DNA of 32,444 nucleotides from a virus. The notes beneath the pieces were generated by a model that was given only the letters and a program-made list of their open reading frames with translations, had not been told where the DNA came from and made no database searches. Below are positions 1 through 24,578 of the stretch, piece by piece; position 1 is the stretch's first letter, and every line of letters starts with the position of its first letter. The position numbers and the translations under genes are program-made. The DNA is taken from the IMG/VR virus record IMGVR_UViG_3300030838_000035, positions 1 to 32,444 of that record. One strand, written 5' to 3'.

Positions 1-760
1 AACCTTCGTTACCGGTGCGCAACGCTTCGGTGGTCAGCATCCCCGAGGCTTGCGCGAGGTCCCACACCCAAGGCCATTCTGCTCGGTTGTAGATAAACCC
101 GCCGATACCGGCCCAGCCACCCGGAGAGAACGCGGTAGTGGTCTCGAACACCGGACGCCCCAACGGTGTGTTGTCGTAACGACCGATGGGCCACCAGTTC
201 CCTGCGCCATCACTTCGCAGGTGCCACCAGTCTCCGGCGCCCATCAACACCAGAAAAGGGTAACCAGACGGACTCAGGTGCGTATGAAACTTGATCCTGT
301 CCGTTCCTGAGGCCTGAACAACTAAACGATTACCGCTGTTATCGGTGCGCCGGATGATGACGTCTACAACGCCTAACGCTTCGTTAGAAACGGGTAAGGT
401 CGTAGTTCGGGCAGCGGCTCTGGCGTCAATCAACACCAGCCCCATTTGATCCGCCGTCAAAGTTGCACTAGCTGATAAAGAGGTGATCCGGCTGAGGGCG
501 AGTAAGGCCGGGGGAATATGCTTGATCTTGGTCCACTCTTCGGCCTCGCCCACAAGTTTTTGAAGTGCCTGAAGCAATTGGGAGTCATTTTCAGGGTCAA
601 GTGCAATACCTAGCCCTACAATGGCATTCACCAGCTCGCGCTGAACTGCGTTCAGCCAGGTAGCCATGATAAGAGTGGCTGGAACACCCGCACCCGGTGC
701 GCCTTCCGTGAATTCTCCGCTCGCATTCGCGGTGGTAGTTGCGCTACCAATTTTCAGCAT
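1..760 (-). CDS. Tail fibre / tail collar protein, N-terminal part (cut by window edge)
   Basis: The reading frame opens with ATG at 758-760, overlapping the TAA of the gp48-like gene as TAATG, and stays open to base 1, giving 253 codons. The N-terminus (MLKIGSATTTANASGEFTEG) followed by a TWLNAVQRELVNAI segment is typical of Mu/P2-type tail fibre or collar proteins. This region attaches to the baseplate and is followed by a variable host-binding part. Residues 180-235 are rich in Trp and Gly, as in fibre shaft or tip domains. The position directly after gp48 is where Mu encodes its fibre gene S. The receptor-binding end and any fibre-assembly chaperone or invertible segment lie outside the window. 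Confidence 0.85.
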   Translation of the reverse strand, partial: MLKIGSATTTANASGEFTEGAPGAGVPATLIMATWLNAVQRELVNAIVGLGIALDPENDSQLLQALQKLVGEAEEWTKIKHIPPALLALSRITSLSASATLTADQMGLVLIDARAAARTTTLPVSNEALGVVDVIIRRTDNSGNRLVVQASGTDRIKFHTHLSPSGYPFLVLMGAGDWWHLRSDGAGNWWPIGRYDNTPLGRPVFETTTAFSPGGWAGIGGFIYNRAEWPWVWDLAQASGMLTTEALRTGNEG

Positions 761-1335
761 TAGTTTGCTCCGTAACCAAATAAAAGAATCGACTCGGCAG
801 GCTTTAACTGGCCAAACCGACACTCCAACGCTTTATTGCCCCAGGCTGCGAGGGGATCGCCTGCACTGGCCACACCAGCAACGGCAGGGACAACCGTCAC
901 CGCAGGGGCGTTGATGCGCCATGTCCAATCCCAGTCGCCACCATTGATGGGGTCGCCCGCGCTCGCAATACCTGCTCGGGCAGGTCGAAATACCGTGATG
1001 GTGATTTCGTAGCCAAGCGACTTGGCCAAAGCGATAAAGAACGGCGCACTTTGGCCCGCGTACCCCTTCCACTTGCTAACAGCGGCATTCACACGCTGTC
1101 CGACGGACTGGGTAGTACCGATCAAGCAGGGATCTGGAAGGCCCAGCACACGCTCCCAGTCGGCCAAGCCGTTACCGCTGTCAGGCAGAATGGCTGAGAG
1201 GACCTGGCCCGTTACCAATGTCGCAGCGCTCAAAGCGGCAGCTTCTGATTCGATTACCGAGGCAAGCTTCGCAGCGTGGAGGTCGTATGCTTCAGGCGGC
1301 AGTAATGCGCGGAGTTGATCACCGAGTACGGTCAT
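760..1335 (-). CDS. Baseplate/tail protein, Mu gp48-like (DUF2313, YmfQ family)
   Basis: This 191-residue protein belongs to the DUF2313/YmfQ family, which joins the baseplate to the tail fibres in Mu-like and P2-like myophages. An N-terminal helical part (DQLRALLPPEAYDLH) is followed by a conserved segment with LADWERVLGLPD around residues 55-67. The Gly/Asp/Trp-rich C-terminal half contains the family's paired AGIASAGDPI and AGVASAGDPL repeats. The length is close to Mu gp48. The start at 1335 overlaps the gp47 stop by four bases (ATGA), and the stop overlaps the fibre start (TAATG), so translation is probably coupled through the baseplate operon. Confidence 0.88.
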   Translation of the reverse strand: MTVLGDQLRALLPPEAYDLHAAKLASVIESEAAALSAATLVTGQVLSAILPDSGNGLADWERVLGLPDPCLIGTTQSVGQRVNAAVSKWKGYAGQSAPFFIALAKSLGYEITITVFRPARAGIASAGDPINGGDWDWTWRINAPAVTVVPAVAGVASAGDPLAAWGNKALECRFGQLKPAESILLFGYGAN

Positions 1336-2402
1336 TCAAGAATTCCCAGGGTGATCGTTCCGGGGCGAATCCAGCCGATCAAAGCAGCATCGTCTGACGC
1401 AGGCACGTTGGCCGTTGGCGTCAATACATCACGATCAACGACGCCTGCGAGGTTGGTAATCATCCCTTCAATCTGGGATCGCATCAGGCCGTCGGATGGG
1501 CTCAACGCACCCAGGAGACTGTTGTAGGCTTTTTGAGCGGCTACCTGCACATCAGCGAGCAGGTAGCCTTTGGCCAACTTGACTTTGGCTTCAGTGTCCA
1601 CGATGCGCTGCGTAGGGGCGAACACCGCAGCGTCAGCAATCACGCTGCAAAGACTTTGAATATGGGCCTGGCAAGCAGCAATAGTGATGTCGGACGGAAT
1701 TCCCGTGCTACCGGTGATCACCACGTCTACGGTCCCTCCGCCTCGACGCCCCGGAAGGACCAGCGCACTGGCCACACCCTCGACCTCCTTGGCCCAACGC
1801 TCATAGTCGTAGTCCGCACCACCGGCCGGGGGCTTCTGGATGAGCTCCAGCAGCCTGGCCCTCAGCGAACTGACCGTCTCCTGGTCTTCACCACCAGTCG
1901 TTTGCGATACAAAAACGGCACCGGCATCCATCCCCAAGGGTGGACTCGCCAAGGTCAGGGCGCCTGTGAGGTCATTGGCAGATGTACCAGCCGTTTGAGC
2001 CAAAACATGCGCAGTCCCGGTGCCTGCGGCGCCGAGAGTCGCATCAGCCGCAACCACGAACACGTTACCGCTGGCGATATGGGTCATGGTGGCGCCTTGG
2101 AACAGCGTGACCTCTGCGGTTCCGGACAGCGAAACAGGAGCACCTGCTGAAACGGCACCCTTACGCGATAGGCCGCGCAAGGCCGCCTCATGGATTACTT
2201 CGTCATCGTCGGATGTATCGGCAAAGATTTGGTCATAGACCCAGGCTAGTTTCTGGTAGAAGCCCTCTAGTGCTGCCGCAAAGGACGCTGAACGGACGTA
2301 ATTGTCGCTGTCAGAAGTGATATCTGCCTCAGCATCGAGGTTGCGAATATCGCGCAGAATTTTGCTGAGGATGGAGTCGAAGGTCGGTACTGAGAGCGCC
2401 AT
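1332..2402 (-). CDS. Baseplate protein, Mu gp47-like (baseplate J family)
   Basis: This 356-residue protein belongs to the baseplate J family (P2 gpJ, Mu gp47, T4 gp6-like), which builds the wedges of a contractile-tail baseplate. The N-terminus (MALSVPTFDSILSKILRDIR) and the central KPPAGGADYDYERWAKEVEG motif near residues 190-210 are the family hallmarks. After them come a VDVVITGSTGIPS strand region and a helical C-terminus. The length is nearly that of Mu gp47. The start overlaps the gp46 stop (TGATG type) and the end overlaps gp48 by four bases, consistent with stoichiometric co-translation of wedge components. Confidence 0.92.
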   Translation of the reverse strand: MALSVPTFDSILSKILRDIRNLDAEADITSDSDNYVRSASFAAALEGFYQKLAWVYDQIFADTSDDDEVIHEAALRGLSRKGAVSAGAPVSLSGTAEVTLFQGATMTHIASGNVFVVAADATLGAAGTGTAHVLAQTAGTSANDLTGALTLASPPLGMDAGAVFVSQTTGGEDQETVSSLRARLLELIQKPPAGGADYDYERWAKEVEGVASALVLPGRRGGGTVDVVITGSTGIPSDITIAACQAHIQSLCSVIADAAVFAPTQRIVDTEAKVKLAKGYLLADVQVAAQKAYNSLLGALSPSDGLMRSQIEGMITNLAGVVDRDVLTPTANVPASDDAALIGWIRPGTITLGILE

Positions 2403-2752
2403 CAGATAACCCTTACAGGATGCTGGAAAACCTGCTCGACGCCTGCGCTGTCGATCACTGTGATCAACAGGTGCAGCCAGCCAGTGTGCGGCTGTTCAAC
2501 GTCGACCGAAACGGATGCGGCTCGCCCATCATCAACCAGAGGCTGAAGCGCTTCGGTTGCGTATTGCTTGCCAAGGATGCCGACCCTGGATAAGTCCTTG
2601 GAGCGGCGGAGTAGGTACAGGCGGGAGCCCAAAACGGGATCGGCCCACCAGGAACCGAGCGGCACGGTGAGTCTGAGATAAACGGCGTTGGCAAGCGTCT
2701 TGATACGCTTGCCAGTTAAGTCGCCTGATGTTGGGTCTATGCCTGCGTCCAT
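2402..2752 (-). CDS. Baseplate wedge protein, Mu gp46-like (GPW/gp25 family)
   Basis: This 116-residue protein is a small baseplate wedge subunit of the GPW/gp25 type (lysozyme-like fold without lysozyme activity). The family pattern is visible: a GIDPTSGDLTG opening, a central VPLGSWWADPVLGSRLYLLR segment (residues 30-49), and a C-terminal beta part. The start is uncertain. The ATG at 2752 has no convincing ribosome site, and the frame stays open 14 more codons upstream, with a CTG but no ATG, GTG or TTG there. A 76-base gap separates it from gp45, unusual in this otherwise overlapping tail operon. Its role next to the J-like protein follows from family and synteny. Confidence 0.85.
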   Translation of the reverse strand: MDAGIDPTSGDLTGKRIKTLANAVYLRLTVPLGSWWADPVLGSRLYLLRRSKDLSRVGILGKQYATEALQPLVDDGRAASVSVDVEQPHTGWLHLLITVIDSAGVEQVFQHPVRVI

Positions 2753-2828
2753 GCGGGCATGATGGTGGTTGAGGTGGCCGAGCAGTCTTTCCAGACCGTT
2801 TAATTACACGTCCTGGTCAGTTCAGTCA

Positions 2829-3386
2829 TCACATGCTGATCGTGTCGCTTGAGTTGGGAGAGATGCTACCTTTGGCAAGGATAATGCCACCGACTCCGAT
2901 GCTACCGGTAGTTACGATATTGCCCCTCACTGCCAGCCCCTTTTCAATTGTTACCGTGGCGTCCGTTTCCAGCAGTGGCGTCTGGATCGAGACTTTTTTG
3001 GCGGCCTTCATGATCAGCGTGTCGGTCTCTACTTCGATCACCCGACCGCGCTTGAGATGCACCTTATCACCCTCGTCGGTGTACAGAGCGACTTCCCCTT
3101 TATCCAGCGTGAGTCGATACCGGCCATCCTCGCTGGCCACAACCACGGCATGCTGACTGCTCCCACCGACTGGGATGCAGATGTACTCGGCGCCTGGCAG
3201 CGGCGATGATGTGAACCCGTAATGCTGAAACAGCTCTCCCGGCACGGCTTCACCGGCCAAGCCCTGCATCTGCACCCCGAGCAGCTTGCCCTGAGTCGAG
3301 GCGCTGGCCACAGCTCGAAACGCCTGGCGCACGCTGCTGCGCTCGCGGGCAGCCTGCTCCCGCATCATCCGTCCTAATGTCTTCAC
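2829..3386 (-). CDS. Baseplate assembly/spike protein, Mu gp45-like (gpV family)
   Basis: This is the central tail spike/baseplate hub of the gpV-gp45 family, which pierces the outer membrane. The chosen start is GTG at 3386, overlapping the TAG of gene P as TAGTG. It is preceded by a GGGGG Shine-Dalgarno at suitable spacing and gives 185 residues, about the length of Mu gp45. Longer frames upstream translate the gene-P region out of frame and are not family-like. An OB-fold-like N-terminal half contains VPGELFQHYGFTSSPLPGAE. It is followed by repetitive beta-rich sequence (ETDTLIMKAAKKVSIQTPLL, then Gly-rich turns) typical of a triple-stranded beta-helix spike. Confidence 0.88.
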   Translation of the reverse strand: MKTLGRMMREQAARERSSVRQAFRAVASASTQGKLLGVQMQGLAGEAVPGELFQHYGFTSSPLPGAEYICIPVGGSSQHAVVVASEDGRYRLTLDKGEVALYTDEGDKVHLKRGRVIEVETDTLIMKAAKKVSIQTPLLETDATVTIEKGLAVRGNIVTTGSIGVGGIILAKGSISPNSSDTISM

Positions 3387-4501
3387 TAAAACCCCCTGAC
3401 CATTTCGATAAATGCCGCGTCCTTGTCGCCCTTTCTCCCCTTGTGTTTCTTCACCTTGGCGCCGTCGAGTACCCACATCTTGTCTTCTCGCAGACGCAGC
3501 TCTGTGATCGCACCTTGGCTTCGTGTGAGTCGCAGGGTGCGAGCCATGAGAAAGTAAATGGCGTTCAACCCATGGGGCTCGCTTCTGACCCACACGCGCT
3601 GACCAGGTGTCCATACGTCGCCATTGCCGCAGCGGTGGCCCTTAACAATCGCTCGGATTTCTAGCCCCTCCAAACGACTGTCGGCGAGCAGCTTTCGGGC
3701 ACGTGTAGTTGCCATGTCCTGGTTCTCGGTGCTGCTGTCAATCACCACCTTAGGCCGGAAAATTCCTCGCTTGGCCAAGGTCTCGTCCTGGATCACTGAC
3801 CGCAGGTGCGAGCGGCTGGTGTCGAGGCCGTCATTATCGTACTGGCCGTGCTGGCCCAGCAGAGTTATCTGGCTGTATCGGTTGGCGATGGACCGGCGAA
3901 CGCCAAGGCGCTCGACGTTGTTACCCTCACCGTTGCGGTTCATGATCAGCTCAGCCACTGGCGGGGCCTCGTAGTCAGGACCACCAACTACCAGTGTGCC
4001 GTCGGGATCAAACCATGGCCAAAGACCGTTGGCCTCGGCGACCTGCAACAGCGCCTCCCAAGCGGACTGCCCAGGCTCGATCTGCACCCGGCGGCGCGAC
4101 TTGGCGGCATCTGCCTGGATTCTGATCTTGCTGATGCCCAGTGGCTTCACGACCAGGTCGACAACTTCACGCAACGATGCTTCCCGCAGCGACACGAATG
4201 GGCATGAGCAATCAACCAGAGCAGCAGCTCCGTCCCGACCATTGATGCGGATTGCGACACCTTGACGGCTCACGTCATGCTCGAACTCATCGATCTGGCC
4301 AGTCAAGACCCGATCACGGCCGAGGTTGAGTATGCAGCTTGCCCCCTCGACCAGGACGGATGGGAGCGCGGCAGAGTCCTTGACGTAAAGCTCCAGTTCA
4401 AAGGCATCGGCCGGAGTGAGCAGGTCCGACTCTACAGACCAGCCGTCCCACGTGTCATGGGTGAGCCCGCCGATGGCCAGCGTTATAGAGTCATTTTGCA
4501 T
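3386..4501 (-). CDS. P: Baseplate hub protein, Mu gp44/P-like (gpD family)
   Basis: This 371-residue protein is the Mu P/P2 gpD-type hub that forms the ring between tube, baseplate and spike. It starts with an immunoglobulin-like module (MQNDSITLAIGGLTHDTWDG). It has the conserved DGAAALVDCSCPF segment around residue 90-105 and the GQSAWEALLQVAEANGLWPW segment around 145-165, where other members read similarly. The length is close to Mu P. The ATG at 4501 was chosen over an upstream codon because it begins the conserved N-terminus; it overlaps the end of N by 11 bases. The stop overlaps the GTG of gp45. It sits between N and gp45 exactly as in Mu. Confidence 0.9.
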   Translation of the reverse strand: MQNDSITLAIGGLTHDTWDGWSVESDLLTPADAFELELYVKDSAALPSVLVEGASCILNLGRDRVLTGQIDEFEHDVSRQGVAIRINGRDGAAALVDCSCPFVSLREASLREVVDLVVKPLGISKIRIQADAAKSRRRVQIEPGQSAWEALLQVAEANGLWPWFDPDGTLVVGGPDYEAPPVAELIMNRNGEGNNVERLGVRRSIANRYSQITLLGQHGQYDNDGLDTSRSHLRSVIQDETLAKRGIFRPKVVIDSSTENQDMATTRARKLLADSRLEGLEIRAIVKGHRCGNGDVWTPGQRVWVRSEPHGLNAIYFLMARTLRLTRSQGAITELRLREDKMWVLDGAKVKKHKGRKGDKDAAFIEMVRGF

Positions 4502-5819
4502 ACGCACGAAGCACCTCACCTGGCTGGATGTTGTAGGGAGCACTCAGGCCCGGATTCAGTCGCGCAAGCTCGATGGCCCGTGAGTGATCGCCGTACCAGC
4601 GATGGGCAAGTAGCCGCAGGTTCGCGGCTGACTCAACCGTACGCTCGACCAGTGGCGGACTCAGCAAGATTACGGTGCGGGCACGGGCCTGGATCAGCCC
4701 GGCCATGGTGCGCAATGCATCGATAACCGGCAGTGCGGCCTGCACGTCGTACAGGCGCCTATGCAGCAGAATGGCCGACTCCAAGAGCGACCTGACAAGG
4801 TTGACCAACGCCTCCACGTCGCTCGGACTCAGGGTCTGAGTGGTCGCCTCGTCCTCAATGATTACCGACACGGCCTGAGCATTTGCCAGCGCCGTCTCCG
4901 TGATGATCAGCACCACCAGTGCCAAACCTGCCGCTTCAACGGGATCGGTTGGCATGCTGTCAGGGATCACCGACGCATCCGGCTCGGTGCCTTGGCGGGC
5001 ACTGACGAGCAGTGCCGTGGCCGCTCGCGATGCTTGCGCCGTCAAACTGGTGCTGCCTGGCACCGTCGCCGGGATGCCGCTACGGGACAGCAACTCACGC
5101 GAGGTCGACGGCGTGCTGTTCTGGATGGCGCCCCGAATCTCCGTCGGCGTCCTGGTCAAGTCCACCAGCGGATCAAATGCAGACGAAGGGTCACTACTGG
5201 CCATGCTTTTAACCTGCGACACCACTCCCATGATCTGGCTACGAAGCTGCTGCAAGCGAAGGCCGATACCAGGTAACCCCAAAGCCTTTTCCAACAGACC
5301 TGTCCAACCGCCACCGATCCAACTCTGGATCTCGGCAACCAGGGAATCGATTTTCGCCAGGAGGTCAAAGAGGCCGTCCTGCCATGTAACCTCATCTTCC
5401 GCATAGCCCTTTTTCTGTAGCGTCAACGCGAGATCCCGGCCAAAGAAAGGATTGTCCGGGATGTCCTCCAGAAATTGCAGATCCACTTCTGCATAATCCG
5501 GACGCTCGGCGGTATGACGCACTCGCCACGACTGAGTGACAACAGAGACGCGGCCATAAATCGGGTGGATTAACTCACCTTGACCTGGGATGTCCAAAGC
5601 TTTGAGCAGTAACTGCAACCAAAGATCATAGTTCGGACCATTAAAAATTACCCGCATTGCAAACGCCCTGGCGCCCCGGCCTAAATCCTCAACACTATCC
5701 CCATCTTTGTAGGGAGTGCCGTGTTGGCTGGTGTAACGCTGGGCTTCTAAGTTTTCGTCTGCAACGTCTATTGGAACGCCTCGAAACGAGGCGTCCAGCA
5801 AGTTCTTTTCCCAGCTCAA
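4491..5819 (-). CDS. N: DNA circulation/tail-baseplate protein N-like (Mu gp43)
   Basis: This 442-residue protein has the DNA-circularisation N-terminal domain (DNA_circ_N, roughly residues 5-100, opening MSWEKNLLDASFRGVPIDV). That domain is characteristic of Mu gpN, which is needed for tail assembly and carries circular-form DNA binding in the family description. The middle (residues 140-300) is helical and low in similarity. The last 35 residues (SRAIELARLNPGLSAPYNIQ) resemble a LysM-like peptidoglycan-binding motif. The start is a TTG at 5819 overlapping the tape-measure stop by four bases (TTGA). This non-ATG start may lower yield relative to neighbours. It is slightly shorter than Mu N. 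Confidence 0.88.
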   Translation of the reverse strand: MSWEKNLLDASFRGVPIDVADENLEAQRYTSQHGTPYKDGDSVEDLGRGARAFAMRVIFNGPNYDLWLQLLLKALDIPGQGELIHPIYGRVSVVTQSWRVRHTAERPDYAEVDLQFLEDIPDNPFFGRDLALTLQKKGYAEDEVTWQDGLFDLLAKIDSLVAEIQSWIGGGWTGLLEKALGLPGIGLRLQQLRSQIMGVVSQVKSMASSDPSSAFDPLVDLTRTPTEIRGAIQNSTPSTSRELLSRSGIPATVPGSTSLTAQASRAATALLVSARQGTEPDASVIPDSMPTDPVEAAGLALVVLIITETALANAQAVSVIIEDEATTQTLSPSDVEALVNLVRSLLESAILLHRRLYDVQAALPVIDALRTMAGLIQARARTVILLSPPLVERTVESAANLRLLAHRWYGDHSRAIELARLNPGLSAPYNIQPGEVLRAYAK

Positions 5820-8038
5820 TTTCCGCGCCTCACTTGAATGTCTGTTCGGCGCTCAACTTCGGCTTGAACCATTTCCGAGTTAAGACGCAACTCGACAACC
5901 AATGGTTTATCCACCAATGATCGCAAGCGTTGTTCTGCCATGTTATCGGCACCTTGTTGAAGTGGGCCGACACTTGCCTGAGTCAAACGATTAGCCGCAT
6001 TCTGCGCCCAACTTACAGCTCCAGCCGCTGAGGTGCCCGCAGCTGTAAGTCCGGTTTGCTCTTGAGTTAAGCGCTGGGCCTGACTGGAAAGCCAATCACT
6101 TGTCGCATCCGGATTACTCTTGGCAAGTTCAATTCGGTTTTTATAAAAAGAAGTTTTATAAGTCTTCTGACCAGCATCATCCAACTTGGAGTTTTGCACG
6201 GCTCGCAATCGGCCTTCATCTGTATTCTCCGTTGAACCACTGGTTAGCGCGGCAATGGCGGCCAAACTTACAATCCCGAACGGCACCGCCGGAATCACCT
6301 TCGTTGACTTACCATTAAGTTCGGGGATTGAGCCTGGAGTTATTCCTTCTGACGGCCAGTTAGTAACAAACACCGAAGTAACGCCTGTTGCTTCCTCCAA
6401 TACTTTGCCAACGGCGATATTCTTTAGTGTTTCAGGGCCACCCATAAATTTATTGATAAGTGCCCCTGCACCTGCCTTGACGCCGCGACCAGCGTAATAA
6501 CCACCAACACCAACAGCAGCACTGCCAGCCAATAGCTGCTCACCCGAAAGATTCAAGTCATCGAGTAAGTAACTCCCGAAGTCCGCAAAACCCTTGTTAA
6601 GTGGTTTGGACATCCGGTCAATAGCCTCACCCAAAGTAGCTTTCATGCGTGCCCCAGCGCCGGTGGCACTTTCCACGTTGTCCTTTAAGTCGCTATCGAA
6701 TATCGGCTTAGCACCTTGAATCTCTTTGGCTTGCCTGCTGAATTTTTCGTTTTTGTCGCCGCTCAGCATAATGCGCATGCCACGAATGGTGTCCTGGTCC
6801 ATACCTTTGAACACCGTACCCATAAACTTGCCGCGCTCTTCGTCGGTCCTCATCTTGTCGTACTTGCGTTTAAGGTCCGCAAATACTTGCTCTGGGTTGC
6901 GCGATGCACCTTTCGAGTCAAAGAACTTTACGCCAGATGCTTTCGTGACCTGGTCTCGATAAGTTTTGTTGCTGAACACGCGCAGAGTCGACTCGGCAAG
7001 TGTGCCTAATCGCTCCGGTTGCATCTCAACGGTCGAGAGTGTTTCGGTAAATGCCAAAGCCTGTGCGAGCGACATGCCCGCCGCCTGCGCTGCACCACCG
7101 ATCTTAGGGAACAGGTCGGCAAGGTTCTCCAGTTCGGCGTTACCCTGGCGACCGGCCACCGTCATCTTTTGCAGCAGATCGAGCGCGACACCCGCCTTGT
7201 TAAGGTCAAGATTGAAGGCGCTGGCACCCGCGACAACGGCTTTACCCAGTACCGCCGAATCTGCCCCTGTGACCGCCGTCGCCTGGCCAATTGCATCGGA
7301 GGTTTTCTTGGACGCGCCGTAGTTCACGCCAGAAGCGATCAAGGTATTAAAGCCGCTATCAACATCGGTTCGGTCGAGGCCGTACTTCTTCGCGATTCGG
7401 AAGCCTTCGTTGCGCCATTCTTCACGCTCCGCGTTCGTCATGCCTGCGGTCTGCTGAGTTCGGATCAGCGAGCGATCCAGCTTGGCGCTACCGGTAAGCC
7501 CGGCACCGACACCGACGCCAATGCCCAGACCGGCTAACTTTCCCTGCGCGCTCTGGCCAAAGCCCTTCAAGCGGTTAAACTCGTCACGAACGCCCCCAGC
7601 CAGGCGCTTGAGCAGACGCAGGTTGCTACCGCCAGACTGAGCGAGACGCCGCATGCTGACTTCCGTCTTGTCGACGGACTGGCGGAGCTGGTCCGCGCCT
7701 TCTTTGGCGGCCTTGGCCAACTCGGTTTTGGTATCCCGCGCAGCTTGGCGCCCGGCCTGGCCCATGCCCTTCAGCTCAGCAGTGGTCTGAGTGACGCCCT
7801 GCCGGAACACACCTTGCCCCTGCGCCGTCTCCCGCATCGCCTGGCGCACGATCTTGTAACTCGTCGCGCCCGTTTGGGCGGACTTATTGAGGGCGGCCCC
7901 GGTCCTGTTCGCCTCGTCCCCTAGCGCTTTGGCACCGTCCCTGGCGGTTTTCTTCAGACTTTGCTCAAGGGCCTGGATCTCGCGGCGACTGTTACCGGAG
8001 GTCGCTTGAATCCGCAGGGCAACCCGTAAATCACTCAT
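5816..8038 (-). CDS. Tail tape measure protein
   Basis: This 740-residue protein sets tail length and passes through the tube during DNA ejection. The first 150 residues are Ala/Gln/Lys/Arg-rich helix (ALRIQATSGNSRREIQALEQ), followed by the phage tail tape-measure core (about 180-420), with a DLFPKIGGAAQAAGMSLAQA type segment. Hydrophobic glycine-rich stretches occur near residues 165-185 (GKLAGLGIGVGVGAGLTG), 510-530 and 590-610, consistent with membrane-inserting parts. The position after the tail-assembly chaperone pair and before N is the standard order. The upstream gap of 58 bases holds a terminator-like hairpin, so expression may be set separately from the sheath and tube genes. Confidence 0.93.
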   Translation of the reverse strand: MSDLRVALRIQATSGNSRREIQALEQSLKKTARDGAKALGDEANRTGAALNKSAQTGATSYKIVRQAMRETAQGQGVFRQGVTQTTAELKGMGQAGRQAARDTKTELAKAAKEGADQLRQSVDKTEVSMRRLAQSGGSNLRLLKRLAGGVRDEFNRLKGFGQSAQGKLAGLGIGVGVGAGLTGSAKLDRSLIRTQQTAGMTNAEREEWRNEGFRIAKKYGLDRTDVDSGFNTLIASGVNYGASKKTSDAIGQATAVTGADSAVLGKAVVAGASAFNLDLNKAGVALDLLQKMTVAGRQGNAELENLADLFPKIGGAAQAAGMSLAQALAFTETLSTVEMQPERLGTLAESTLRVFSNKTYRDQVTKASGVKFFDSKGASRNPEQVFADLKRKYDKMRTDEERGKFMGTVFKGMDQDTIRGMRIMLSGDKNEKFSRQAKEIQGAKPIFDSDLKDNVESATGAGARMKATLGEAIDRMSKPLNKGFADFGSYLLDDLNLSGEQLLAGSAAVGVGGYYAGRGVKAGAGALINKFMGGPETLKNIAVGKVLEEATGVTSVFVTNWPSEGITPGSIPELNGKSTKVIPAVPFGIVSLAAIAALTSGSTENTDEGRLRAVQNSKLDDAGQKTYKTSFYKNRIELAKSNPDATSDWLSSQAQRLTQEQTGLTAAGTSAAGAVSWAQNAANRLTQASVGPLQQGADNMAEQRLRSLVDKPLVVELRLNSEMVQAEVERRTDIQVRRGN

Positions 8039-15398: not shown

Positions 15399-16628
15399 CT
15401 ACTTAGACCGACGATAAAGACGAACACCCACCCGCAGACTAGCCAGTAGGTCATCCGCGCCAGATCCGTCCTCGACGGTCGACGTCCAGCCATCGCTACC
15501 CATCTCAACGACCACGGCCTCTGGCGCGGCCTGGCCAGCCACGGCGAACCGTGAGACGTAGCGCTTGCGTAGGACGGCGCGCTTCTGATCCTCCAGCCAG
15601 TCAATGCGCGCCCAGATCTCGTCGGGTTCACGGATGGCCTGAGCCAACAGCAGCAGATCACCAGGTGGAAGGCGCAACTGGCCTTCAGCTCCCTCGAACA
15701 TCCCGCGACCGATCACCAGCGGATCTCCCGCCAGATCACGGAACACGGCCGGAGCGTCGGTTTTGGCACCGAACGTCTTCAGGAATCGGTCCACCTGCGC
15801 GGCAGGCGTGAGCCCCTTTGGCATGCGCTGGACCTCAGTAACCGGCCTGGCTTCCGGCAGCGGGCGCGCTGGAGTACGGCTTGGCACGCCTGGCGTTGGC
15901 TCGATCTTCTGACCTGGCTCGCGGATCTGAGGCACCGCGCCGCTGAGCCTGGACTGACCAGGTGCATAGTCGAAGCCGGGATCAATGCCGACGGGCACCT
16001 TGACTGAGCGAGGGCCAAGCGGGCTGTTCATGCCCACCACCTTCTCTTCATATTCAATGGCAGGGGCTGGGCCGACCTTCAGGCCCTGCCGCTCCACGTC
16101 GCGCTCACTGACCATGAACTTCTTGCACTTGCAGCCCCAACCATTCTGGGGGCTATGAGTGGACCACCATGGATCATCCAGAGGCAGCACCGTGCCATTC
16201 CAGGACAAGTGCATTGGCCGTGGATGAGCGCTATCCCCGTGGCGATAGAGCCCGTAAGGCCGGGCCTTCCTCAATTCAGGGTCGGCCATCTGCGCTTCGC
16301 GGCCAGCGTTATAGCTTTGGCGCAGGTTGGTCTCGTAGATCACACGGGTACGCCAGCCCCGGCCGCCGTTGTACTGCCAGCCATGTTTGCCGACGACCTG
16401 GTCAAAGTCCTTGCGGAACTGTTCCAGGGTGCCGCCGCTGGCAATGGCCTTTTCGACCGAGCCCCGCAGGTCGGTCAGCAAGTCCCGCTTTGAGGCCCCG
16501 GCCACCACAAAAGCCCAGTCGTGCTCTTCTTTATATACATCCGCCCAAGCTCGTGTCGGGAGACTGGTCTTGCCACGAAAGAAGTCGATCTGTTCCTGGA
16601 ACGGTAGCGAGCCATGGGAGACAGCCAT
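15399..16628 (-). CDS. F: Minor head protein F (SPP1 gp7-like) with C-terminal nuclease-fold domain
   Basis: This 409-residue protein has two parts. Residues 1-190 are the Mu F/SPP1 gp7 minor head protein. They include a RVIYETNLRQSYNAGREAQM helix (residues 95-114) and the conserved NGWGCKCKKF (162-171) following the HPRPMHLSWNGTVLP strand. A Pro-rich linker (240-270) leads to residues 275-405. There the pattern FRDLAGDPLVIGRGMF ... LLLLAQAIREPDEIW ... RKRYVSRF closely resembles the PBECR2 domain (Barnase/EndoU/Colicin E5-D/RelE-like nuclease), often fused to MuF proteins. MuF proteins enter the head with DNA, so the fusion could be injected. The toxin activity is not proven; the domain call is from memory of the family. 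Confidence 0.87.
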   Translation of the reverse strand: MAVSHGSLPFQEQIDFFRGKTSLPTRAWADVYKEEHDWAFVVAGASKRDLLTDLRGSVEKAIASGGTLEQFRKDFDQVVGKHGWQYNGGRGWRTRVIYETNLRQSYNAGREAQMADPELRKARPYGLYRHGDSAHPRPMHLSWNGTVLPLDDPWWSTHSPQNGWGCKCKKFMVSERDVERQGLKVGPAPAIEYEEKVVGMNSPLGPRSVKVPVGIDPGFDYAPGQSRLSGAVPQIREPGQKIEPTPGVPSRTPARPLPEARPVTEVQRMPKGLTPAAQVDRFLKTFGAKTDAPAVFRDLAGDPLVIGRGMFEGAEGQLRLPPGDLLLLAQAIREPDEIWARIDWLEDQKRAVLRKRYVSRFAVAGQAAPEAVVVEMGSDGWTSTVEDGSGADDLLASLRVGVRLYRRSK

Positions 16629-18187
16629 TAAAGCCCCCTCAGTACGTCATAACGCCCGGCCAGATTGGCCGCGACCAGACCGTCAGCCATGGCGTCTGCC
16701 AGCTCGGAACTGTTCATGGCAGGATAGGTTTCGATCAGCCGATCCCGGAACTCTTCCAGGCTATGCGAGGCATCGAGCAGTTCCTTGATTGCGTCGACCA
16801 TGTCATCCATCCCGGCTGACGCCTGCCTCTCCAGTGTCTGTACCTGGTTGTCCACGATGTCCCGAGTGGACGGCGTGTCCGCAGCTGGTTGTTCGCGGTT
16901 GGTGGCAGTGGCCAGCGCAGGCTTCTGGTCGGCTTGGGCGGGCTTCCCCAGAATCTCGGCACCATCGGCCGGGGCCGGAAGGTTCAGCCTGTCCCTGATT
17001 ACCGACTGTTCAACGCGCAAGCCAAGCGGGACGAGATCCTTGAGCGCACTAACCAGGAGCTGGACGTTTTCCGGCTGGGGAACATCGACGATCAAACGGG
17101 GGTATGGCCGACCAGGTGCATAGTTCAGGTCGCAATACGGCCGCACCAGTTGCCGGTTAAGTGTATTGCTCAGGGCCTTCGCATCGGCCTGGAGCAAGTC
17201 CAGGCGCACTTCGTTGTGGACTTTTGCCTGCGCCATACTTGCGCCGTCGTCGGCGCTCATGGTCTGGCCGACCACAGCCTTGCTGACCTGCTTGTCCCAC
17301 CACTCGGCCAGGCCTTTGAAGAACTCGCCGGCCCCGGCGACGTTGGCCGCTGTCTGAAAGTCGATGCGCATTGAGTCGGGAATTACGGCCGCTGCATCGC
17401 TCCCAAGGTTGGCCACTGCCGACAACAGCACTCCGATATCGTCTGCGCTGGCACCAGGGCCGTAGCGACCAACGCGCATGGGGATACCGTAGATGTCAGC
17501 GAAGCCCATCCAGTCCTTCCACGTCCAGGCCTTGCACATATAGGCAACGGCTGCGAGCCTGGCTAGGCCGCCACGGATGGGCAGGCCAGAGCGGATACGG
17601 GGCAAGTGCGTGATGAACTTGTACGGCGCAAGCGCGAGCCCGTACATGGGATCGGCCTCATCGAGCAGCCGCAGCTCCCGCCCGGTGGCCTGGTCGAACT
17701 GGAAGAAACGTTGATCGCGTGGTTCGTAGCGTTCCGGCACCCATTCTTTACCGCTACGATCCCAGATGATTTCCGATACGGCGTAAGCCTTGCCCAGTGC
17801 GTCGACCAAATCCGCTTGCAGCTCGCCGAACTCGGGCTGAGTTACCAGCGTCGTGAGGGCTTCGGCCCGGCGCACGTCCTCGGCGTCGTCGCTCGCCGCT
17901 TCGATTCGGACATTCAAACCAGCAACCGCCAGCTTTCGGGTGCCCAGCACGGATGCGTAGTGCAGATCCCGTTCTTCCATCTCTTCGGCAAGAGTTAGGT
18001 AGTCATGCGCCTGACCTTCGACAGCGCCCTGCAGGATGGACGCAAGCCGACCAGGAGTGAGGCCGCTGGCCACTGACGAGTGCCAAACCTGCCGCACGCC
18101 GGTCAGCCGTGGGGCGGCCAGCTCTTGTGTGAGCTGGCCCAAGTCGATTGGGCGGCCGTGTTGATCCACGATGCGCGATTGAGCCAT
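16628..18187 (-). CDS. Portal protein (Mu gp29-like, DUF935)
   Basis: This 519-residue protein is the portal ring through which DNA enters and leaves the head. DUF935 hallmarks are present: an N-terminal MAQSRIVDQHGRPIDLGQLT, the YLTLAEEMEERDLHYASVLG segment (about 65-85), GKAYAVSEIIW, then a GLARLAAVAYMCKAWTWKDW stretch and the FADIYGIPMRVGRYGPGAS motif near residue 235. The C-terminal 130 residues are more variable and helical. The ATG at 18187 (TAATG overlap with the terminase stop) is chosen over an upstream TTG. Its stop overlaps F the same way. Confidence 0.93.
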   Translation of the reverse strand: MAQSRIVDQHGRPIDLGQLTQELAAPRLTGVRQVWHSSVASGLTPGRLASILQGAVEGQAHDYLTLAEEMEERDLHYASVLGTRKLAVAGLNVRIEAASDDAEDVRRAEALTTLVTQPEFGELQADLVDALGKAYAVSEIIWDRSGKEWVPERYEPRDQRFFQFDQATGRELRLLDEADPMYGLALAPYKFITHLPRIRSGLPIRGGLARLAAVAYMCKAWTWKDWMGFADIYGIPMRVGRYGPGASADDIGVLLSAVANLGSDAAAVIPDSMRIDFQTAANVAGAGEFFKGLAEWWDKQVSKAVVGQTMSADDGASMAQAKVHNEVRLDLLQADAKALSNTLNRQLVRPYCDLNYAPGRPYPRLIVDVPQPENVQLLVSALKDLVPLGLRVEQSVIRDRLNLPAPADGAEILGKPAQADQKPALATATNREQPAADTPSTRDIVDNQVQTLERQASAGMDDMVDAIKELLDASHSLEEFRDRLIETYPAMNSSELADAMADGLVAANLAGRYDVLRGL

Positions 18188-19746
18188 TACCAAATGCCTT
18201 TTTTATTGCGCCAGTTACCACCCGATCCGACCTTGTGGCCTGATTGGGCGCCGGGCTGGACGCGGTGGTATTCGAATATTTCGGTTTCTTGGCGAGAGGC
18301 GTAGTCGGCCAGAACGGCCGCTATACCGGCGTCACCGTGACGTTTATCGCCGCTCTTAGAGCCATCACCCTTCTCGGTGGTGCGCTTCTCCGGGATGCGT
18401 GCAACGCCTTTCACCACCCGGAAAGCCCGGATATCGCCGGTCACATCGCGGTCGGCCGGGATCTCGTCAAAGGTGCCGTCCTCAAGCGCCGCCTTGAATG
18501 GCGGCATGTTGTCGCGATACCACCCCTCACTGAGCATGACCCGCTCGATGCGGTTAAATCCGTACCGCACGGCCGCGCTCTCGGCGAGTTGTGATCCGTT
18601 GCCCCTGGCATCCGGGGCGCCCTTGAGAAAGTTGGGCAGGCGGTCAACGATATAAAATAGGATCTGCTCTTGCTGCTTGAACGGTACGTTCCGCAGCTCG
18701 ACCAGGAAGGGAGTGCGCTTGCGCAGATTCTGCTCTTTGACCAAAGGCCAGATCACTGACAGGTCGCCACTGCGGGCGAAGTCGTGACCGTAATAGCTGT
18801 ACACGTCGGCCGGGATCTTGGACAGCAGCGGCAGCAATTCGCGCTCGCACCACTCCAGCGACTCGGCCATCCTTAGATGCTCAGGGATAGTCTCGTACCC
18901 TGGCGGATACTTGAGCCGGACCACCGGCACATCTTTGCTGGTTCGCTGCTCGATGAGCGCCATGCTCAGGTACGCACCGCCACCCTGACTGGGAACACAG
19001 TCCAGCTCTTCCTCTGCCGCATCGCCGTAGAAGTCGTAAACATCCTGCACCCAGGCTTCTTCTTCCTCTGGGTTGTAGGGGATGCCTTTGCGCAGGCAGA
19101 CGCGCTTATAAAGCCCGTCCGCTACGGCCTCGCGGAAGGTGCAACGAAATAGCTCGCCCTTGCGCTTGCCCGCACGGATTTCCTCAATGAGATCATTGAA
19201 AGGGTTCTCGGCGCCGTCGTGCGTACTGATCACATGCACTTCACCGCCCCAGATCAACAGGGCGAGCGCCGCCTTCAGCAGTTGGGCAAGGTCAGCATGG
19301 AACCCGGCCTCATCAATGACAACGATGCCCTGTCTACCACGCAGGTTGCTCGGGCGGCTGGTCAGAGCAACGATCCGGTGTCCCGATGGGAACGCGATGG
19401 CGTAGGTCTTGATGTGCTTGTCGGGGTCGCTATCCGGCCAGATGCCTTCCTCGATTTCCCCGGCGGCATAGTTGAACGCCCGCGCCCAGAGTGCGCACGC
19501 CTGGATGTATTCGACCGTCATGTCCTGGTTGTATCCCAGGTAATAGACGTTCTGGCCACCGGCTGGCTTTTCGGACGCGCAGACCAGGACGTTATCCGCA
19601 GCCTCAGCCCACGTCAGGCCGATACGGCGTGACTTCTCACCGATCTTGAGCGGCGCTCTGATCCCAATCCATTCCTTCTGGTAGTCGAGAAGCACTGCGG
19701 GAGCGTCCAAGCCCGCGGTGTTGTCCAGGACAACAGGAACCTTCAT
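18187..19746 (-). CDS. Terminase large subunit (Mu gp28-like)
   Basis: This 519-residue protein is the ATP-driven packaging motor and nuclease. The ATPase half has a divergent Walker A region, IGEKSRRIGLTW (35-46), and Walker B IVVIDEAG (141-148, Asp145-Glu146). A STHDGAENPF segment (174-183) fits the coupling motif. The nuclease half begins near YYGHDFARSGDLSVIW (Asp322) with a second acidic site in GDKRHGDAGIAA near the end. The ATG at 19746 is preceded by GAAGG at a usable distance; longer frames read into the divergent plus-strand gene and are rejected. Mu packages by headful from a pac site near its left end using this subunit with gp27. Confidence 0.93.
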   Translation of the reverse strand: MKVPVVLDNTAGLDAPAVLLDYQKEWIGIRAPLKIGEKSRRIGLTWAEAADNVLVCASEKPAGGQNVYYLGYNQDMTVEYIQACALWARAFNYAAGEIEEGIWPDSDPDKHIKTYAIAFPSGHRIVALTSRPSNLRGRQGIVVIDEAGFHADLAQLLKAALALLIWGGEVHVISTHDGAENPFNDLIEEIRAGKRKGELFRCTFREAVADGLYKRVCLRKGIPYNPEEEEAWVQDVYDFYGDAAEEELDCVPSQGGGAYLSMALIEQRTSKDVPVVRLKYPPGYETIPEHLRMAESLEWCERELLPLLSKIPADVYSYYGHDFARSGDLSVIWPLVKEQNLRKRTPFLVELRNVPFKQQEQILFYIVDRLPNFLKGAPDARGNGSQLAESAAVRYGFNRIERVMLSEGWYRDNMPPFKAALEDGTFDEIPADRDVTGDIRAFRVVKGVARIPEKRTTEKGDGSKSGDKRHGDAGIAAVLADYASRQETEIFEYHRVQPGAQSGHKVGSGGNWRNKKGIW

Positions 19747-19805
19747 GCTGTTAACCTTCTTGCCTGTCCCACTTCTTGACCAACAAAACTCAAAGGGAAT
19801 GACTG

Positions 19806-20288
19806 ATGATCGACTGGGTTGCGGCCGCATTCACGAGCGCAAAAACAGCGGGAGATATCGCGAAAAGCTTGATAACCCTGCGCGATGAAGATCTTGTAAG
19901 AGGTCGACTCATGGACCTGACGGGTACTTTGATGGACCTTCAACAGCAAATGATGCAGGGCCAACTGGAACAAATGGCGCTGATCAAACAAGTGGCTGAA
20001 CTGGAGGACGAGCTTAAAAAAGTGACAGCCAAGCAAAACGTCCTTGATCGCTATGAGCTGCTGAGCGTAGGTCCGGCGAAGGTCGTGTACGCACTCAAAG
20101 CAGAGTTTGCAGCGATGGAACCAGCTCACTTGTGTTGCACCAACTGCTATGACAAAGGCCATCGCTCTGTGCTGAAAGCGCAGGGACAAGGCTCTCAATC
20201 GGATTACATGAAATTCTCCTGCCCCGCCTGTTCGTACACTTTTTACATTACCGGGCAATATCTTCCAGCGGCCCTTAGGGTGCGCTAA
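19806..20288 (+). CDS. Antisense cargo (moron-like) coiled-coil zinc-ribbon protein
   Basis: This 160-residue protein is the only complete gene on the plus strand. It sits between the gp27-like and gp28-like packaging genes. It begins at ATG 19806 with an AAGGGA ribosome site and ends 8 bases before the convergent gp27-like stop. Residues 33-80 form a Gln/Leu/Glu-rich coiled coil. Cys111-x2-Cys114 and Cys139-x2-Cys142 make a C-terminal zinc ribbon. It has no signal peptide or membrane segment. Its base composition is visibly more A-rich than its neighbours. I recall similar MIDWVAAA...KTAGDIAKSL proteins as hypothetical proteins of several gammaproteobacteria, but no function. The site and strand fit a moron expressed in the lysogen; no clear promoter was found. 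Confidence 0.85.
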   Translation: MIDWVAAAFTSAKTAGDIAKSLITLRDEDLVRGRLMDLTGTLMDLQQQMMQGQLEQMALIKQVAELEDELKKVTAKQNVLDRYELLSVGPAKVVYALKAEFAAMEPAHLCCTNCYDKGHRSVLKAQGQGSQSDYMKFSCPACSYTFYITGQYLPAALRVR

Positions 20289-20296
20289 TAGAAAAG

Positions 20297-20809
20297 TCAT
20301 GAGGCCATCCCCAGAATCTCGCGGCGGATCTCGTCGACCGTCGCGGCGTTGAGCCCACCTTTCTTGGCGATCTTCTCCACCCGAGCTGCGGCCGCTTCGG
20401 CCTTCTCGCGAAACTCGGCCTGCCATTTCTTCTGGACCACGGAGGCGCGGCCCAGCTCGGCAACGGCTTTTGCCACCTTGGGAAGGTCGATCTGGTTGCC
20501 GTCGGACATCAGCAGTTTGAACAGGTGTTCCTGGACGAGCCGCATCAGCGCTTCGTTGACTGCTCCCTCTTCATCCGGAGCGGCCTGAACCACGGCACGG
20601 GCCTGCTCGCTGGCCATCTTAAGCGCAGAAAGCTTGTCCTCAAACTCGGTGCCATACCGATGCAACGCCGATTTACCGATTGAGTAACCACGGCTTTCCA
20701 GCTCGCCGGACAGCAGCTCGTAACCTGAAAAGTTGTTTTCGACCAACGACTGATCAAGCCAAGCCTTCACTTCGGCCGGGAGTGCGGCCACCTTGCTACG
20801 GGGCGGCAT
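20297..20809 (-). CDS. Terminase small-subunit-like protein (Mu gp27-like, DUF3486)
   Basis: This 170-residue protein matches DUF3486 (Mu gp27), the DNA-recognising partner of the large terminase. The N-terminal MPPRSKVAALPAEVKAWLDQ continues into SGYELLSGELESRGYSIGKS, a helix-turn-helix-like region that includes SALHRYG (residues 14-52). It is followed by long Ala/Glu-rich helices for oligomerisation (60-150). It would normally run directly into the large subunit, but here the antisense cargo gene separates the two by 550 bases. It starts 3 bases after the gp26-like stop. Confidence 0.9.
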   Translation of the reverse strand: MPPRSKVAALPAEVKAWLDQSLVENNFSGYELLSGELESRGYSIGKSALHRYGTEFEDKLSALKMASEQARAVVQAAPDEEGAVNEALMRLVQEHLFKLLMSDGNQIDLPKVAKAVAELGRASVVQKKWQAEFREKAEAAAARVEKIAKKGGLNAATVDEIRREILGMAS

Positions 20810-23197: not shown

Positions 23198-23520
23198 GCG
23201 CGAGACTCACTTGAAGGTTTGATTGATGAGCGGAGGCTTGCCAAGTGCATGGCCGCCAATTCGGGATTACTGCGAACGTGCTGGGGTTCCTGGTATGCGG
23301 CATGCGCGATGGATTTGGCTTTTGTTGCAGGCCGCCACTTCTCGCGTTGACGGACTGTCTCCGCATCACGCTCTTCGGCGATAGCAACATGCTTTAGTAC
23401 CAAGTCCCGCCAGTCCGATGGACATGCCTGGATGGCGGCGTTGCGATCCTCCTGAGATGCTGCTGCATGGATCAGGACGGCGTACGCACGGGGCGAAGTT
23501 GGCTTCGGCTGGGTAGACAT
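23194..23520 (-). CDS. Uncharacterised first protein of the late operon
   Basis: This 108-residue soluble protein is not recognised. It is helical and rich in Ala, Arg, Glu and Gln, with a SDWRDLVLKHVAIAEERDAE helix in the middle and a basic, Ser-rich C-terminus. It is the first gene after the operon-ending terminator at 23594-23621 and overlaps the holin by four bases. It is therefore probably expressed from the late promoter together with the lysis genes. Function cannot be inferred beyond a possible role in lysis or early-late coordination. Confidence 0.72.
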   Translation of the reverse strand: MSTQPKPTSPRAYAVLIHAAASQEDRNAAIQACPSDWRDLVLKHVAIAEERDAETVRQREKWRPATKAKSIAHAAYQEPQHVRSNPELAAMHLASLRSSIKPSSESRA

Positions 23521-23593
23521 GACGCGAATCCGTCTGCGAGAAGTACCCGGCTAGATTCACGTTTTGGGAAGGATTGGTGAGTTTCTTAAACGC
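23521..23593 (-). promoter_or_regulatory. Candidate activator-dependent middle/late promoter region
   Basis: This short gap between the terminator and the first late gene must hold the start of the late transcript. No good -35/-10 pair is visible, as expected if Mor or a related activator is required. An imperfect inverted repeat, CGTGAATC...GATTCGCG on the minus strand, lies directly before the ATG and could be an activator site. The placement, not the sequence, is the main evidence. Confidence 0.35.
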
Positions 23594-23621
23594 GCAAGAA
23601 AAAGCCCGCTGCTGCGGGCTT
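23594..23621 (-). terminator. Intrinsic terminator ending the early/middle operon
   Basis: On the minus strand, AAGCCCGC paired with GCGGGCTT makes a perfect 8-bp stem with a four-base loop, followed by TTTTTCTT. It overlaps the stop codon of the secreted-protein gene at 23620. This cleanly separates early/middle transcription (ner to the secreted protein) from late transcription (lysis, head, tail). Confidence 0.85.
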
Positions 23622-24144
23622 AGTTATTTCGTAGGTCCATGATGAATTTTATATCATCTTCAGAATTGCCCTCGCGCCTAAGTTGGGCGGCGATCTCTTC
23701 ATCAGTTTGAGACTCAACGGAGTCCCCGCTCCCTGAATGAGTGGCGATTTGACGCTCGCATTCGGCGCTATCGGCAATCCAATTGCGATCTGCGTAATCG
23801 GTCTCAAACTTGGTCGGCGCTTTATTAGCACATGCTCCGTTGATGTATCCAACGTCAGTGAGCATTTGACGACATGCGGAGTAACTGAGCCTGGCTTGAA
23901 ATCTTAAGTGGCTGATCGGCTGCTCGCGTATTTGGGTATCGATCATGCGCATTATTTCTGACTGCTTCACGTCATCGAGACCAAGACAGGATTTTTTTGT
24001 CTCAGGCCATAGAGCCCTAGCTAACTTTTGGTTTGCGAGAGCTTCAATTCTTGCGTCGTCATCCGAAACCGCTTTCGCGGGGGCGGCTTGCAATCCACCT
24101 TGAATGAGCAAGAGCCCCGCAAAAGCAACATACCGTTGGATCAA
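23620..24144 (-). CDS. Secreted four-cysteine protein coupled to mor (moron candidate)
   Basis: This 174-residue protein is not recognised. A signal peptide (MIQRYVAFAGLLLIQGGLQA, cleavage near residues 20-25) leads to a soluble, probably periplasmic domain with Cys53, Cys91, Cys105 and Cys129, enough for two disulfides. An acidic C-terminal helix follows (EEIAAQLRREGNSEDDIKF). The start is TTG at 24144, overlapping the mor stop as TTGA and preceded by GGGA. It is the last gene before the terminator. Mu has no secreted protein there, so this looks like added cargo. Envelope effects such as superinfection exclusion are possible but unproven. Confidence 0.78.
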   Translation of the reverse strand: MIQRYVAFAGLLLIQGGLQAAPAKAVSDDDARIEALANQKLARALWPETKKSCLGLDDVKQSEIMRMIDTQIREQPISHLRFQARLSYSACRQMLTDVGYINGACANKAPTKFETDYADRNWIADSAECERQIATHSGSGDSVESQTDEEIAAQLRREGNSEDDIKFIMDLRNN

Positions 24145-24578
24145 TGGATCGTCCCTTCATCGAACCCGAATAAATCGGGCTCGTTGCGGCGATGCAGTGC
24201 CCGTTGACGGGCGATGATGTCATAAATCGTCGGAGAGGCAAGCCGATACTTCCTGACCAATTCAGAAGGCTGGATATTGTTGTCCCTCCAGTCACGAAAT
24301 ATGGACGCATCCCGCATGGCCTTCTTCAACGCTTCACCGCGTGGCAAATAAACCACGCTACCGCCCATCACGTCGCAAATCGCAAATACCACGTAACGGG
24401 CGATCTCAGGAACATCAGTTCGCTCACCCAACTTGGCGCGCAACTCTGATTCGGCGATCTCAACCATTTCCTTGAGCGTACCCTCCCAACGCAAGAGGAC
24501 TGCCGGGTCTTCCATGTGCGCCAATACCTTGGCCGGATCCAGGCTATCCGAATCATCGGGAAACAGAGGCTCCGTCAT
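24141..24578 (-). CDS. mor: Middle operon transcriptional activator Mor
   Basis: This 145-residue protein belongs to the Mor/C family. The N-terminal dimerisation part (MTEPLFPDDSDSLDPAKVLA) leads to an ICDVMGGSVVYLPRGEALKK core (67-86), corresponding to Mor's GGGQVYIPRG turn. The C-terminal helix-turn-helix (RDWRDNNIQPSELVRKYRLA, then SPTIYDIIARQRALHRR) follows. Mor dimers bind just upstream of a promoter lacking a -35 and recruit sigma70 RNA polymerase. The start overlaps gemA (ATGA), as in Mu, where gemA and mor also share their ends. No separate C activator gene is seen in this window. Confidence 0.93.
   Translation of the reverse strand: MTEPLFPDDSDSLDPAKVLAHMEDPAVLLRWEGTLKEMVEIAESELRAKLGERTDVPEIARYVVFAICDVMGGSVVYLPRGEALKKAMRDASIFRDWRDNNIQPSELVRKYRLASPTIYDIIARQRALHRRNEPDLFGFDEGTIH

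What the first reader, a model, noticed from the sequence alone, without database searches (positions are those of the whole stretch)
19806..20288. Antisense cargo gene wedged between the two terminase genes
A complete gene with its own ribosome site is on the opposite strand to everything else in the lytic region. It separates gp27-like and gp28-like genes that are normally adjacent. Its product has a coiled coil plus a Cys4 zinc ribbon. It looks acquired (more A-rich) and could act in the lysogen, for example against other phages or host stress. Transcription on the plus strand would also run antisense into the gp27-like gene, since no terminator follows, so it might tune packaging genes. 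The function is unknown.
Basis: partly seen in the sequence, partly recalled or inferred. Interest (0 to 1): 0.65.

Follow-up and report, generated by a model that had tools for sequence, protein, structure and literature searches.

The report
Rip1-family phage-defence gene, antisense in terminase slot
The odd backward gene is a real cargo gene, a distant relative of Rip1 (a prophage protein that caps the small-terminase ring of an attacking phage), and in its home between the two DNA-packaging genes it almost never uses the codons that would put a stop in the overlapping frame on the other strand, so the packaging operon can be read straight through it.

Summary
Window 19806-20288 (+) is a genuine 160-aa gene, the only + strand gene recognised in the lytic region, between terS and terL of a Mu-like Pseudomonas phage. 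It belongs to phrog_1244. Its only significant sequence match and its best fold match in the PDB are 9oox, phage HK446 Rip1 bound to the T6 small terminase (23% identical overall). In 81 TerS relatives the TerS|TerL junction is a cargo slot: Rip in 25 (always antisense), sense genes in 21, nothing in 35. Rip was gained or lost at least 13 times and swaps between phages with unrelated terminases. Published JBD26 tab, another prophage defence gene, occupies the same slot in the same orientation. A prophage-expressed Rip1-like defence is the best reading; activity is untested.

The unexpected result: 22 divergent slot Rips contain 1 TTA/CTA/TCA codon where about 38 are expected. This keeps a roughly 185-codon 'bridge' frame open on the late strand, joined to terS and terL by 4-nt ATGA overlaps. 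It held in every further slot gene checked, six of them divergent. The bridge peptide shows no conservation. I infer selection for continuous translation of the late mRNA. TerL probably starts at 19746, not 19830, so it does not overlap rip.

The parts
19806..20288 (+). rip: Rip1-family protein, 160 aa (stop included in the coordinates)
   Evidence: phrog_1244 6e-34; PDB 9oox by sequence 6e-12 and by fold 6e-7; Ka/Ks 0.07-0.13
19792..19798 (+). Shine-Dalgarno AAAGGGA of rip
   Evidence: sequence; AAAGG/CAAGG kept upstream of rip in sister loci
19747..19805 (.). 59-bp divergent gap between the terL and rip starts; must hold or adjoin the rip promoter
   Evidence: TerL start set by rip-less relatives. 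Weak extended -10 candidate TGTTAACCT at 19749-19757, not kept in sister loci
19809..19871 (+). N-terminal amphipathic helix, residues 2-22 (possible membrane/pore segment, inferred)
   Evidence: low model confidence here
19887..20045 (+). long helix, residues 28-80 (coiled-coil part)
   Evidence: AF2 model, pLDDT about 78-93
20136..20231 (+). Cys4 zinc ribbon, C111-C114 and C139-C142
   Evidence: invariant columns
19743..20300 (-). bridge ORF, 185 codons, codon-aligned antisense to rip; ATGA overlap with the terS stop and with the terL start
   Evidence: kept open by absence of TTA/CTA/TCA codons in rip
20297..20809 (-). terS-like gene (small terminase)
   Evidence: phrog_426 1e-48
18187..19746 (-). 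terL-like gene (large terminase), start corrected from 19830
   Evidence: phrog_2; start by comparison with rip-less relatives
16628..18193 (-). portal gene (context)
   Evidence: phrog_113 9e-151

Best explanation
The gene is a Rip1-family prophage defence gene carried as cargo in the TerS|TerL slot. In the lysogen it would be expressed from its own promoter on the strand opposite to the silent late operon (inferred). When another phage infects and its small-terminase ring assembles late, Rip subunits would dock on that ring (known for HK446 Rip1 with T6 TerS) and assemble a capping ring. That would block packaging and probably open a membrane pore through the N-terminal amphipathic helix (inferred from the protein's name and a meeting report), so the infected cell makes no phage. 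On induction of the resident prophage the late operon runs through rip in the opposite direction. Ribosomes leaving terS would re-initiate at the overlapping ATGA, translate the stop-free bridge frame across rip, and reach the terL ATGA. This would keep terL translated and protect the late mRNA from polarity, and antisense transcription would at the same time damp rip. Shown: homology, fold match, cargo turnover, orientation, stop-free bridge with ATGA at both ends. Inferred: expression timing, target, pore, coupling, silencing.
For: Sequence and fold match to HK446 Rip1 bound to T6 TerS; meeting report that Rip1 blocks incoming phage and that 12 Rip1 cap an 11-mer terminase ring (PMC12908700); invariant Cys4; cargo turnover with near-unchanged TerS; allele swap between unrelated terminases; always antisense in the slot and opposite to the surrounding lytic genes in other phage groups; conserved extended -10 element upstream in 13 of 24 relatives; JBD26 tab precedent in the same slot and orientation (PMC10884400). 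Bridge: 1 TTA/CTA/TCA in 22 genes against 38 expected, 12 of 12 further genes, ATGA chaining in 23 of 24, no peptide conservation.
Against: Only 23% identity to HK446 Rip1 overall. No activity, expression or target data for this gene. No recognisable promoter in the window itself. A model of the window's own TerS matches no solved TerS, so nothing is known about which rings it would bind. One slot Rip (L043) has a stop in the bridge, and JBD26 tab has no open bridge. VW-6B keeps rip near terL with stops in the bridge frame.
Confidence: 0.72

Rival explanations
1. The bridge frame encodes a functional peptide, a counter-defence (anti-Rip) made only in lytic growth, in the position that anti-Tab has in JBD26.
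For: Starts at the terS stop and ends at the terL start like the real sense cargo genes; JBD26 anti-tab has the same position relative to terS; the frame is open in 21 of 22 genes.
Against: Rip third positions, which are bridge first positions, are less conserved than in neighbouring genes (40% against 50%); no excess peptide similarity in pairs near saturation; no family match.
Confidence: 0.1
2. The open bridge frame is only a by-product of Pseudomonas codon bias (TTA, CTA and TCA are rare) and means nothing.
For: The frame is codon-aligned antisense, where stops arise only from these three codons, which are uncommon in such genomes.
Against: Neighbouring genes use these codons; redrawing Rip codons from the neighbours' usage gives 38 stops (never below 17 in 2000 draws) and about 4 of 22 open genes (at most 11), against 1 stop and 21 open genes observed. 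Rip is richer in A-ending codons elsewhere (20%) yet has 0 of 366 in CTN/TCN. Both ends meet ATGA overlaps. Most family members outside the slot carry such codons.
Confidence: 0.05
3. The protein serves its own phage: it binds its own TerS ring to time or tune packaging, and is not a defence.
For: It sits between the terminase genes, and its homologue binds a TerS ring.
Against: Absent from relatives whose TerS differs by 1-3 residues; the same allele group occurs beside unrelated TerS; found far from the terminase genes in other phage groups.
Confidence: 0.08
4. The locus works mainly as antisense RNA that represses terS in the lysogen; the protein is secondary.
For: Rip and terS converge with 8 bp between them and no + strand terminator is seen.
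Against: Strong purifying selection on the protein, and the family exists at sites where it does not face terS.
Confidence: 0.05

Closest known systems
Rip1 of Escherichia phage HK446 (gp37; PDB 9oox with T6 small terminase)
   Same: Homologous over the whole length, same predicted fold and Cys4, small single gene in a prophage, opposite to the surrounding lytic genes
   Different: 23% identity; different N-terminus; lies between cIII and N of a lambdoid phage rather than between terS and terL; no stop-free bridge (2 TCA codons)
Tab / anti-Tab of P. aeruginosa phage JBD26 (PMC10884400)
   Same: Same TerS|TerL slot, opposite strand, prophage-expressed defence against virion assembly
   Different: A different annotated protein that targets the tape measure protein; has a separate sense anti-tab gene; no open bridge
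HK620 hkaP, annotated 'putative superinfection exclusion protein'
   Same: Same family, antisense between N and cIII
   Different: Function not shown in the record; different site; carries TTA/CTA/TCA codons
D3112 orf25, DMS3-25, MP38 ORF25 (hypothetical proteins)
   Same: Same family (about 30% identical to the window protein), same slot and strand, stop-free bridge
   Different: Terminases only 24-26% identical to the window's; a terL overlap of 11 nt rather than 4 in D3112
TerI of a Listeria prophage (meeting report, PMC12908700)
   Same: Prophage-encoded protein proposed to disable the small terminase of phages
   Different: Only a meeting summary is available; no sequence compared here; has two separate self-immunity genes

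Membership tests
Rip1 (ring-interacting pore 1) | Sequence homology to HK446 Rip1 | tested here: met
   phmmer 6e-12 over residues 12-146
Rip1 (ring-interacting pore 1) | Same fold, long helix plus Cys4 C-terminal domain | tested here: met
   Foldseek 6e-7, TM 0.47-0.61; Cys4 invariant
Rip1 (ring-interacting pore 1) | Binds small-terminase (ring) oligomers | not testable with these tools
   Known only for HK446 Rip1 with T6 TerS (title of 9oox)
Rip1 (ring-interacting pore 1) | Membrane pore formation | tested here: inconclusive
   N-terminal amphipathic helix similar in kind to HK446, no strong transmembrane segment; no assay
Rip1 (ring-interacting pore 1) | Protects the lysogen against other phages | not testable with these tools
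   Needs plating experiments
Tab | Antisense gene in the TerS|TerL slot with its own promoter | tested here: inconclusive
   Slot and strand met; the promoter element is clear in relatives, not in the window
Tab | A separate sense anti-tab gene beside the defence gene | tested here: not met
   No separate sense gene in the slot, only the bridge frame over rip; JBD26 has gp30 there
Moron (cargo) gene | Present or absent between the same neighbours in close relatives, different base composition | tested here: met
   GC 52% against 60%

The most novel reading that the evidence does not exclude
The bridge frame is a functional second gene: its peptide, made only when the late operon runs, is the anti-Rip that protects the resident phage, so that defence and counter-defence are written codon-for-codon on the two strands of one piece of DNA. 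The milder version, which I favour and count in the best explanation, is that only the openness is selected: a defence gene evolving under a stop-free constraint on its opposite strand.
Probability: 0.1. Interest if true: 0.88.

Novelty: new variant of a known kind. Interest (0 to 1): 0.66.

Why it matters
It extends the very recent Rip1 ring-binding defence to Mu-like phages, including laboratory phages such as DMS3 and D3112 in which the gene is annotated only as hypothetical, and shows the TerS|TerL junction to be a shared slot for different prophage defences (Rip, Tab). It also suggests a rule that can be tested directly: an antisense gene is tolerated inside a translationally coupled operon if its opposite strand stays stop-free. 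How a prophage carrying a terminase-ring binder avoids harming its own lytic cycle then becomes a direct experiment.

Tried and rejected
Pfam, NCBIfam and PADLOC gave no usable match. Looked for a TerS residue that distinguishes Rip carriers (self-immunity by target change): nothing significant after correction, and near-identical TerS with and without Rip. Tested the bridge peptide for sequence constraint: none found. Apparent excess peptide identity in close pairs is explained by unsaturated ancestry; pairs near saturation show none. Folded the window's TerS to compare with solved TerS: no useful match. Sigma-70 scan around the gene: no promoter. The 'Rip1' of PMC12557735 is an unrelated random protein. 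The exclusion genes of Fc02 (PMC9936078) lie in its lysis-lysogeny region, not here. A wide alignment was too diverse for a pattern search. The first chain script missed the TerL start in several loci and was corrected. The primary Rip1 paper is not in the library.

Full report
What is there. The ORF at 19806-20288 (+) is real: 160 codons, ATG, Shine-Dalgarno AAAGGGA, Ka/Ks 0.07-0.13 against homologues, and a known protein family, phrog_1244 at 6e-34. It separates terS (20297-20809 -, phrog_426) from terL (phrog_2) in a Mu-like phage with transposase, late activator, portal, major head, baseplate wedge and hub genes, all on the minus strand. The bacterial genomes found to carry relatives of this locus are Pseudomonas. 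In the closest rip-less relatives TerL begins at the position that corresponds to 19746 in the window, so the listed start at 19830 is too long; rip and terL are divergent with a 59-bp gap, and rip and terS converge 8 bp apart.

What the protein is. The only significant sequence match in the PDB is 9oox, 'ring interacting pore 1 (Rip1)', 6e-12 over residues 12-146; the aligned 9oox sequence is that of gp37 of Escherichia phage HK446. An AlphaFold2 model from 22 sequences (pLDDT 79.7; N-terminus poor) finds two 9oox chains as the top PDB matches, E about 6e-7, with nothing else below 0.4. That entry is titled as HK446 Rip1 in complex with the Enterobacteria phage T6 small terminase. [quoted passage not shown] I recall a primary paper on pore formation triggered by phage ring proteins, but it is not in the library and I could not check it. 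The four cysteines are invariant across the family, HK446 included. The N-terminal region is amphipathic and near neutral in window, D3112 and HK446 proteins. The C-terminal half evolves faster than the N-terminal half in the more distant pairs, as a recognition domain might.

Cargo slot. Among 80 viral contigs with TerS 70-100% identical, plus the window, 25 carry Rip in the TerS|TerL junction, 21 carry one or two sense genes (small membrane proteins, a Lar-like protein, a DUF3850 protein, a PAPS-reductase-like protein, others), and 35 have no gene there. The closest rip-less relatives differ from the window in TerS by 1-3 residues, and the first three leave the window's sequence at the terS stop and rejoin it near the terL start. 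Rip presence changes at least 13 times on the TerS tree (17-25 with shuffled labels), with 7 independent contrasts on well-supported branches. Alleles 56-65% identical to D3112 Rip sit beside TerS that is 80-88% identical to the window's but only 24-30% to D3112's, so the cassette moves between phages with unrelated terminases and lands at the same junction. D3112, DMS3, MP38, H70, LPB1 and Gregale have the same arrangement; P. fluorescens phage VW-6B has it with one extra gene. JBD18, JBD25 and B23 have terS and terL adjacent. No TerS residue marks Rip carriers after correction for multiple testing.

Precedent for function at this place. In P. aeruginosa phage JBD26 the defence gene tab lies between the terminase genes on the opposite strand with its own promoter and is expressed from the prophage, while anti-tab lies on the late strand overlapping the terS stop (PMC10884400). 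Rip shares slot, orientation and probably logic with this tested defence. In other phage groups the Rip family is also opposite to the lytic genes beside it: between cIII and N in HK446, HK620 (annotated 'putative superinfection exclusion protein') and HK630, in the early operons of transposable phages of Rhodobacter and Pelagibaca, and next to the leftward genes of PhiR29 and EcoM-611R5. In the TerS|TerL slot Rip is antisense in 25/25 and other cargo in 0/21 (related sequences, so the p-value is only indicative).

Promoter. An extended -10 element, TGNTANNNT, lies 60 to 29 bases before the Rip start in 13 of 24 distinct upstream regions, mostly at -42 to -44, against 0.5 expected, D3112 included. 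In the window's own clade it is not recognisable; the single match at -57 (19749-19757) is not kept in the more distant sister loci.

The unexpected constraint. The codon-aligned frame on the strand opposite rip has no stop in the window, and none in 21 of 22 slot Rips that are less than 80% identical. In that frame stops come only from Rip codons TTA, CTA and TCA. There is 1 in 3450 codons; redrawing Leu and Ser codons from neighbouring genes' usage gives 38.1 on average (minimum 17 in 2000 draws) and about 4 open genes (maximum 11), Poisson P about 1e-15. Synonymous sites between these genes are close to saturated, so shared ancestry alone should not keep the frame open. Rip genes are richer in A-ending codons elsewhere (20%) but have 0 of 366 in CTN/TCN. 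The other two opposite frames carry about 8 stops each. Twelve further slot Rips, six of them divergent (45-76% identical to the first set), have none. Family members outside the slot, or in VW-6B's altered slot, have 18 in 8 distinct genes, two of them having none. The frame is an ORF of 169-188 codons that, in 23 of 24 loci tested, starts at or overlapping the terS stop and ends at the terL start, with a 4-nt overlap there in 22; empty and sense-cargo loci are chained by similar overlaps (34/35 and 21/21). In the window it runs from 20300 to 19743 (-), ATGACT...GCATGA.

What it means. If the peptide mattered, Rip third positions (bridge first positions) should be more conserved than in neighbours; they are less so (40% against 50%), pairs near saturation show no excess peptide similarity, and no family matches it. 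So openness, not sequence, appears to be selected. The simplest reading is translational coupling: terS and terL are joined by ATGA in most relatives, and an insert must let ribosomes through, both to feed terL and to prevent Rho-type polarity in a 550-nt stretch. This is inference. An anti-Rip peptide cannot be excluded, since the bridge occupies the position of anti-Tab. Late transcription through rip would also be expected to damp rip when the prophage induces, a candidate self-immunity mechanism that needs no change in TerS.

Confidence. Family membership by sequence and fold is well supported; function in this phage is inferred from a 23%-identical homologue and a same-slot precedent. The stop-avoidance is a strong statistical observation with controls; its cause is inferred.

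Noticed in passing
L019 2959-3480 (Pseudomonas phage Forsyth, PQ571159): The annotators called the late-strand (bridge) ORF as the gene and missed rip on the other strand; such records would hide the Rip family.
   Followed up: partly
TerS|TerL slot of L022-L024, L034, L047, L067, L077, L085: Sense cargo families in the same slot: 49-104 aa small membrane proteins, an 84-aa family near phrog_13471, a Lar-like protein, a DUF3850 protein, a PAPS-reductase-like protein, all ATGA-coupled to terS. Some could be defence or counter-defence genes.
   Followed up: partly
L124 2498-2992 (HK620 hkaP) and L128 (HK630): hkaP, long annotated as a putative superinfection exclusion protein, belongs to the Rip family.
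   Followed up: partly
window 760-4543 (-): Baseplate wedge and hub genes point to a contractile-tail Mu-like phage, whereas Rip is shared with D3112/DMS3-type phages, whose terminases are only distantly related.
   Followed up: no
window 23501-24250 and 5501-7000: Two other stretches of lower GC (about 50%) besides rip; the first includes a gene of unknown family, phrog_32567.
   Followed up: no
L043 (slot Rip): The only slot Rip with a stop in the bridge frame (one TTA codon); whether this phage is defective or has another way to couple terL was not examined.
   Followed up: no
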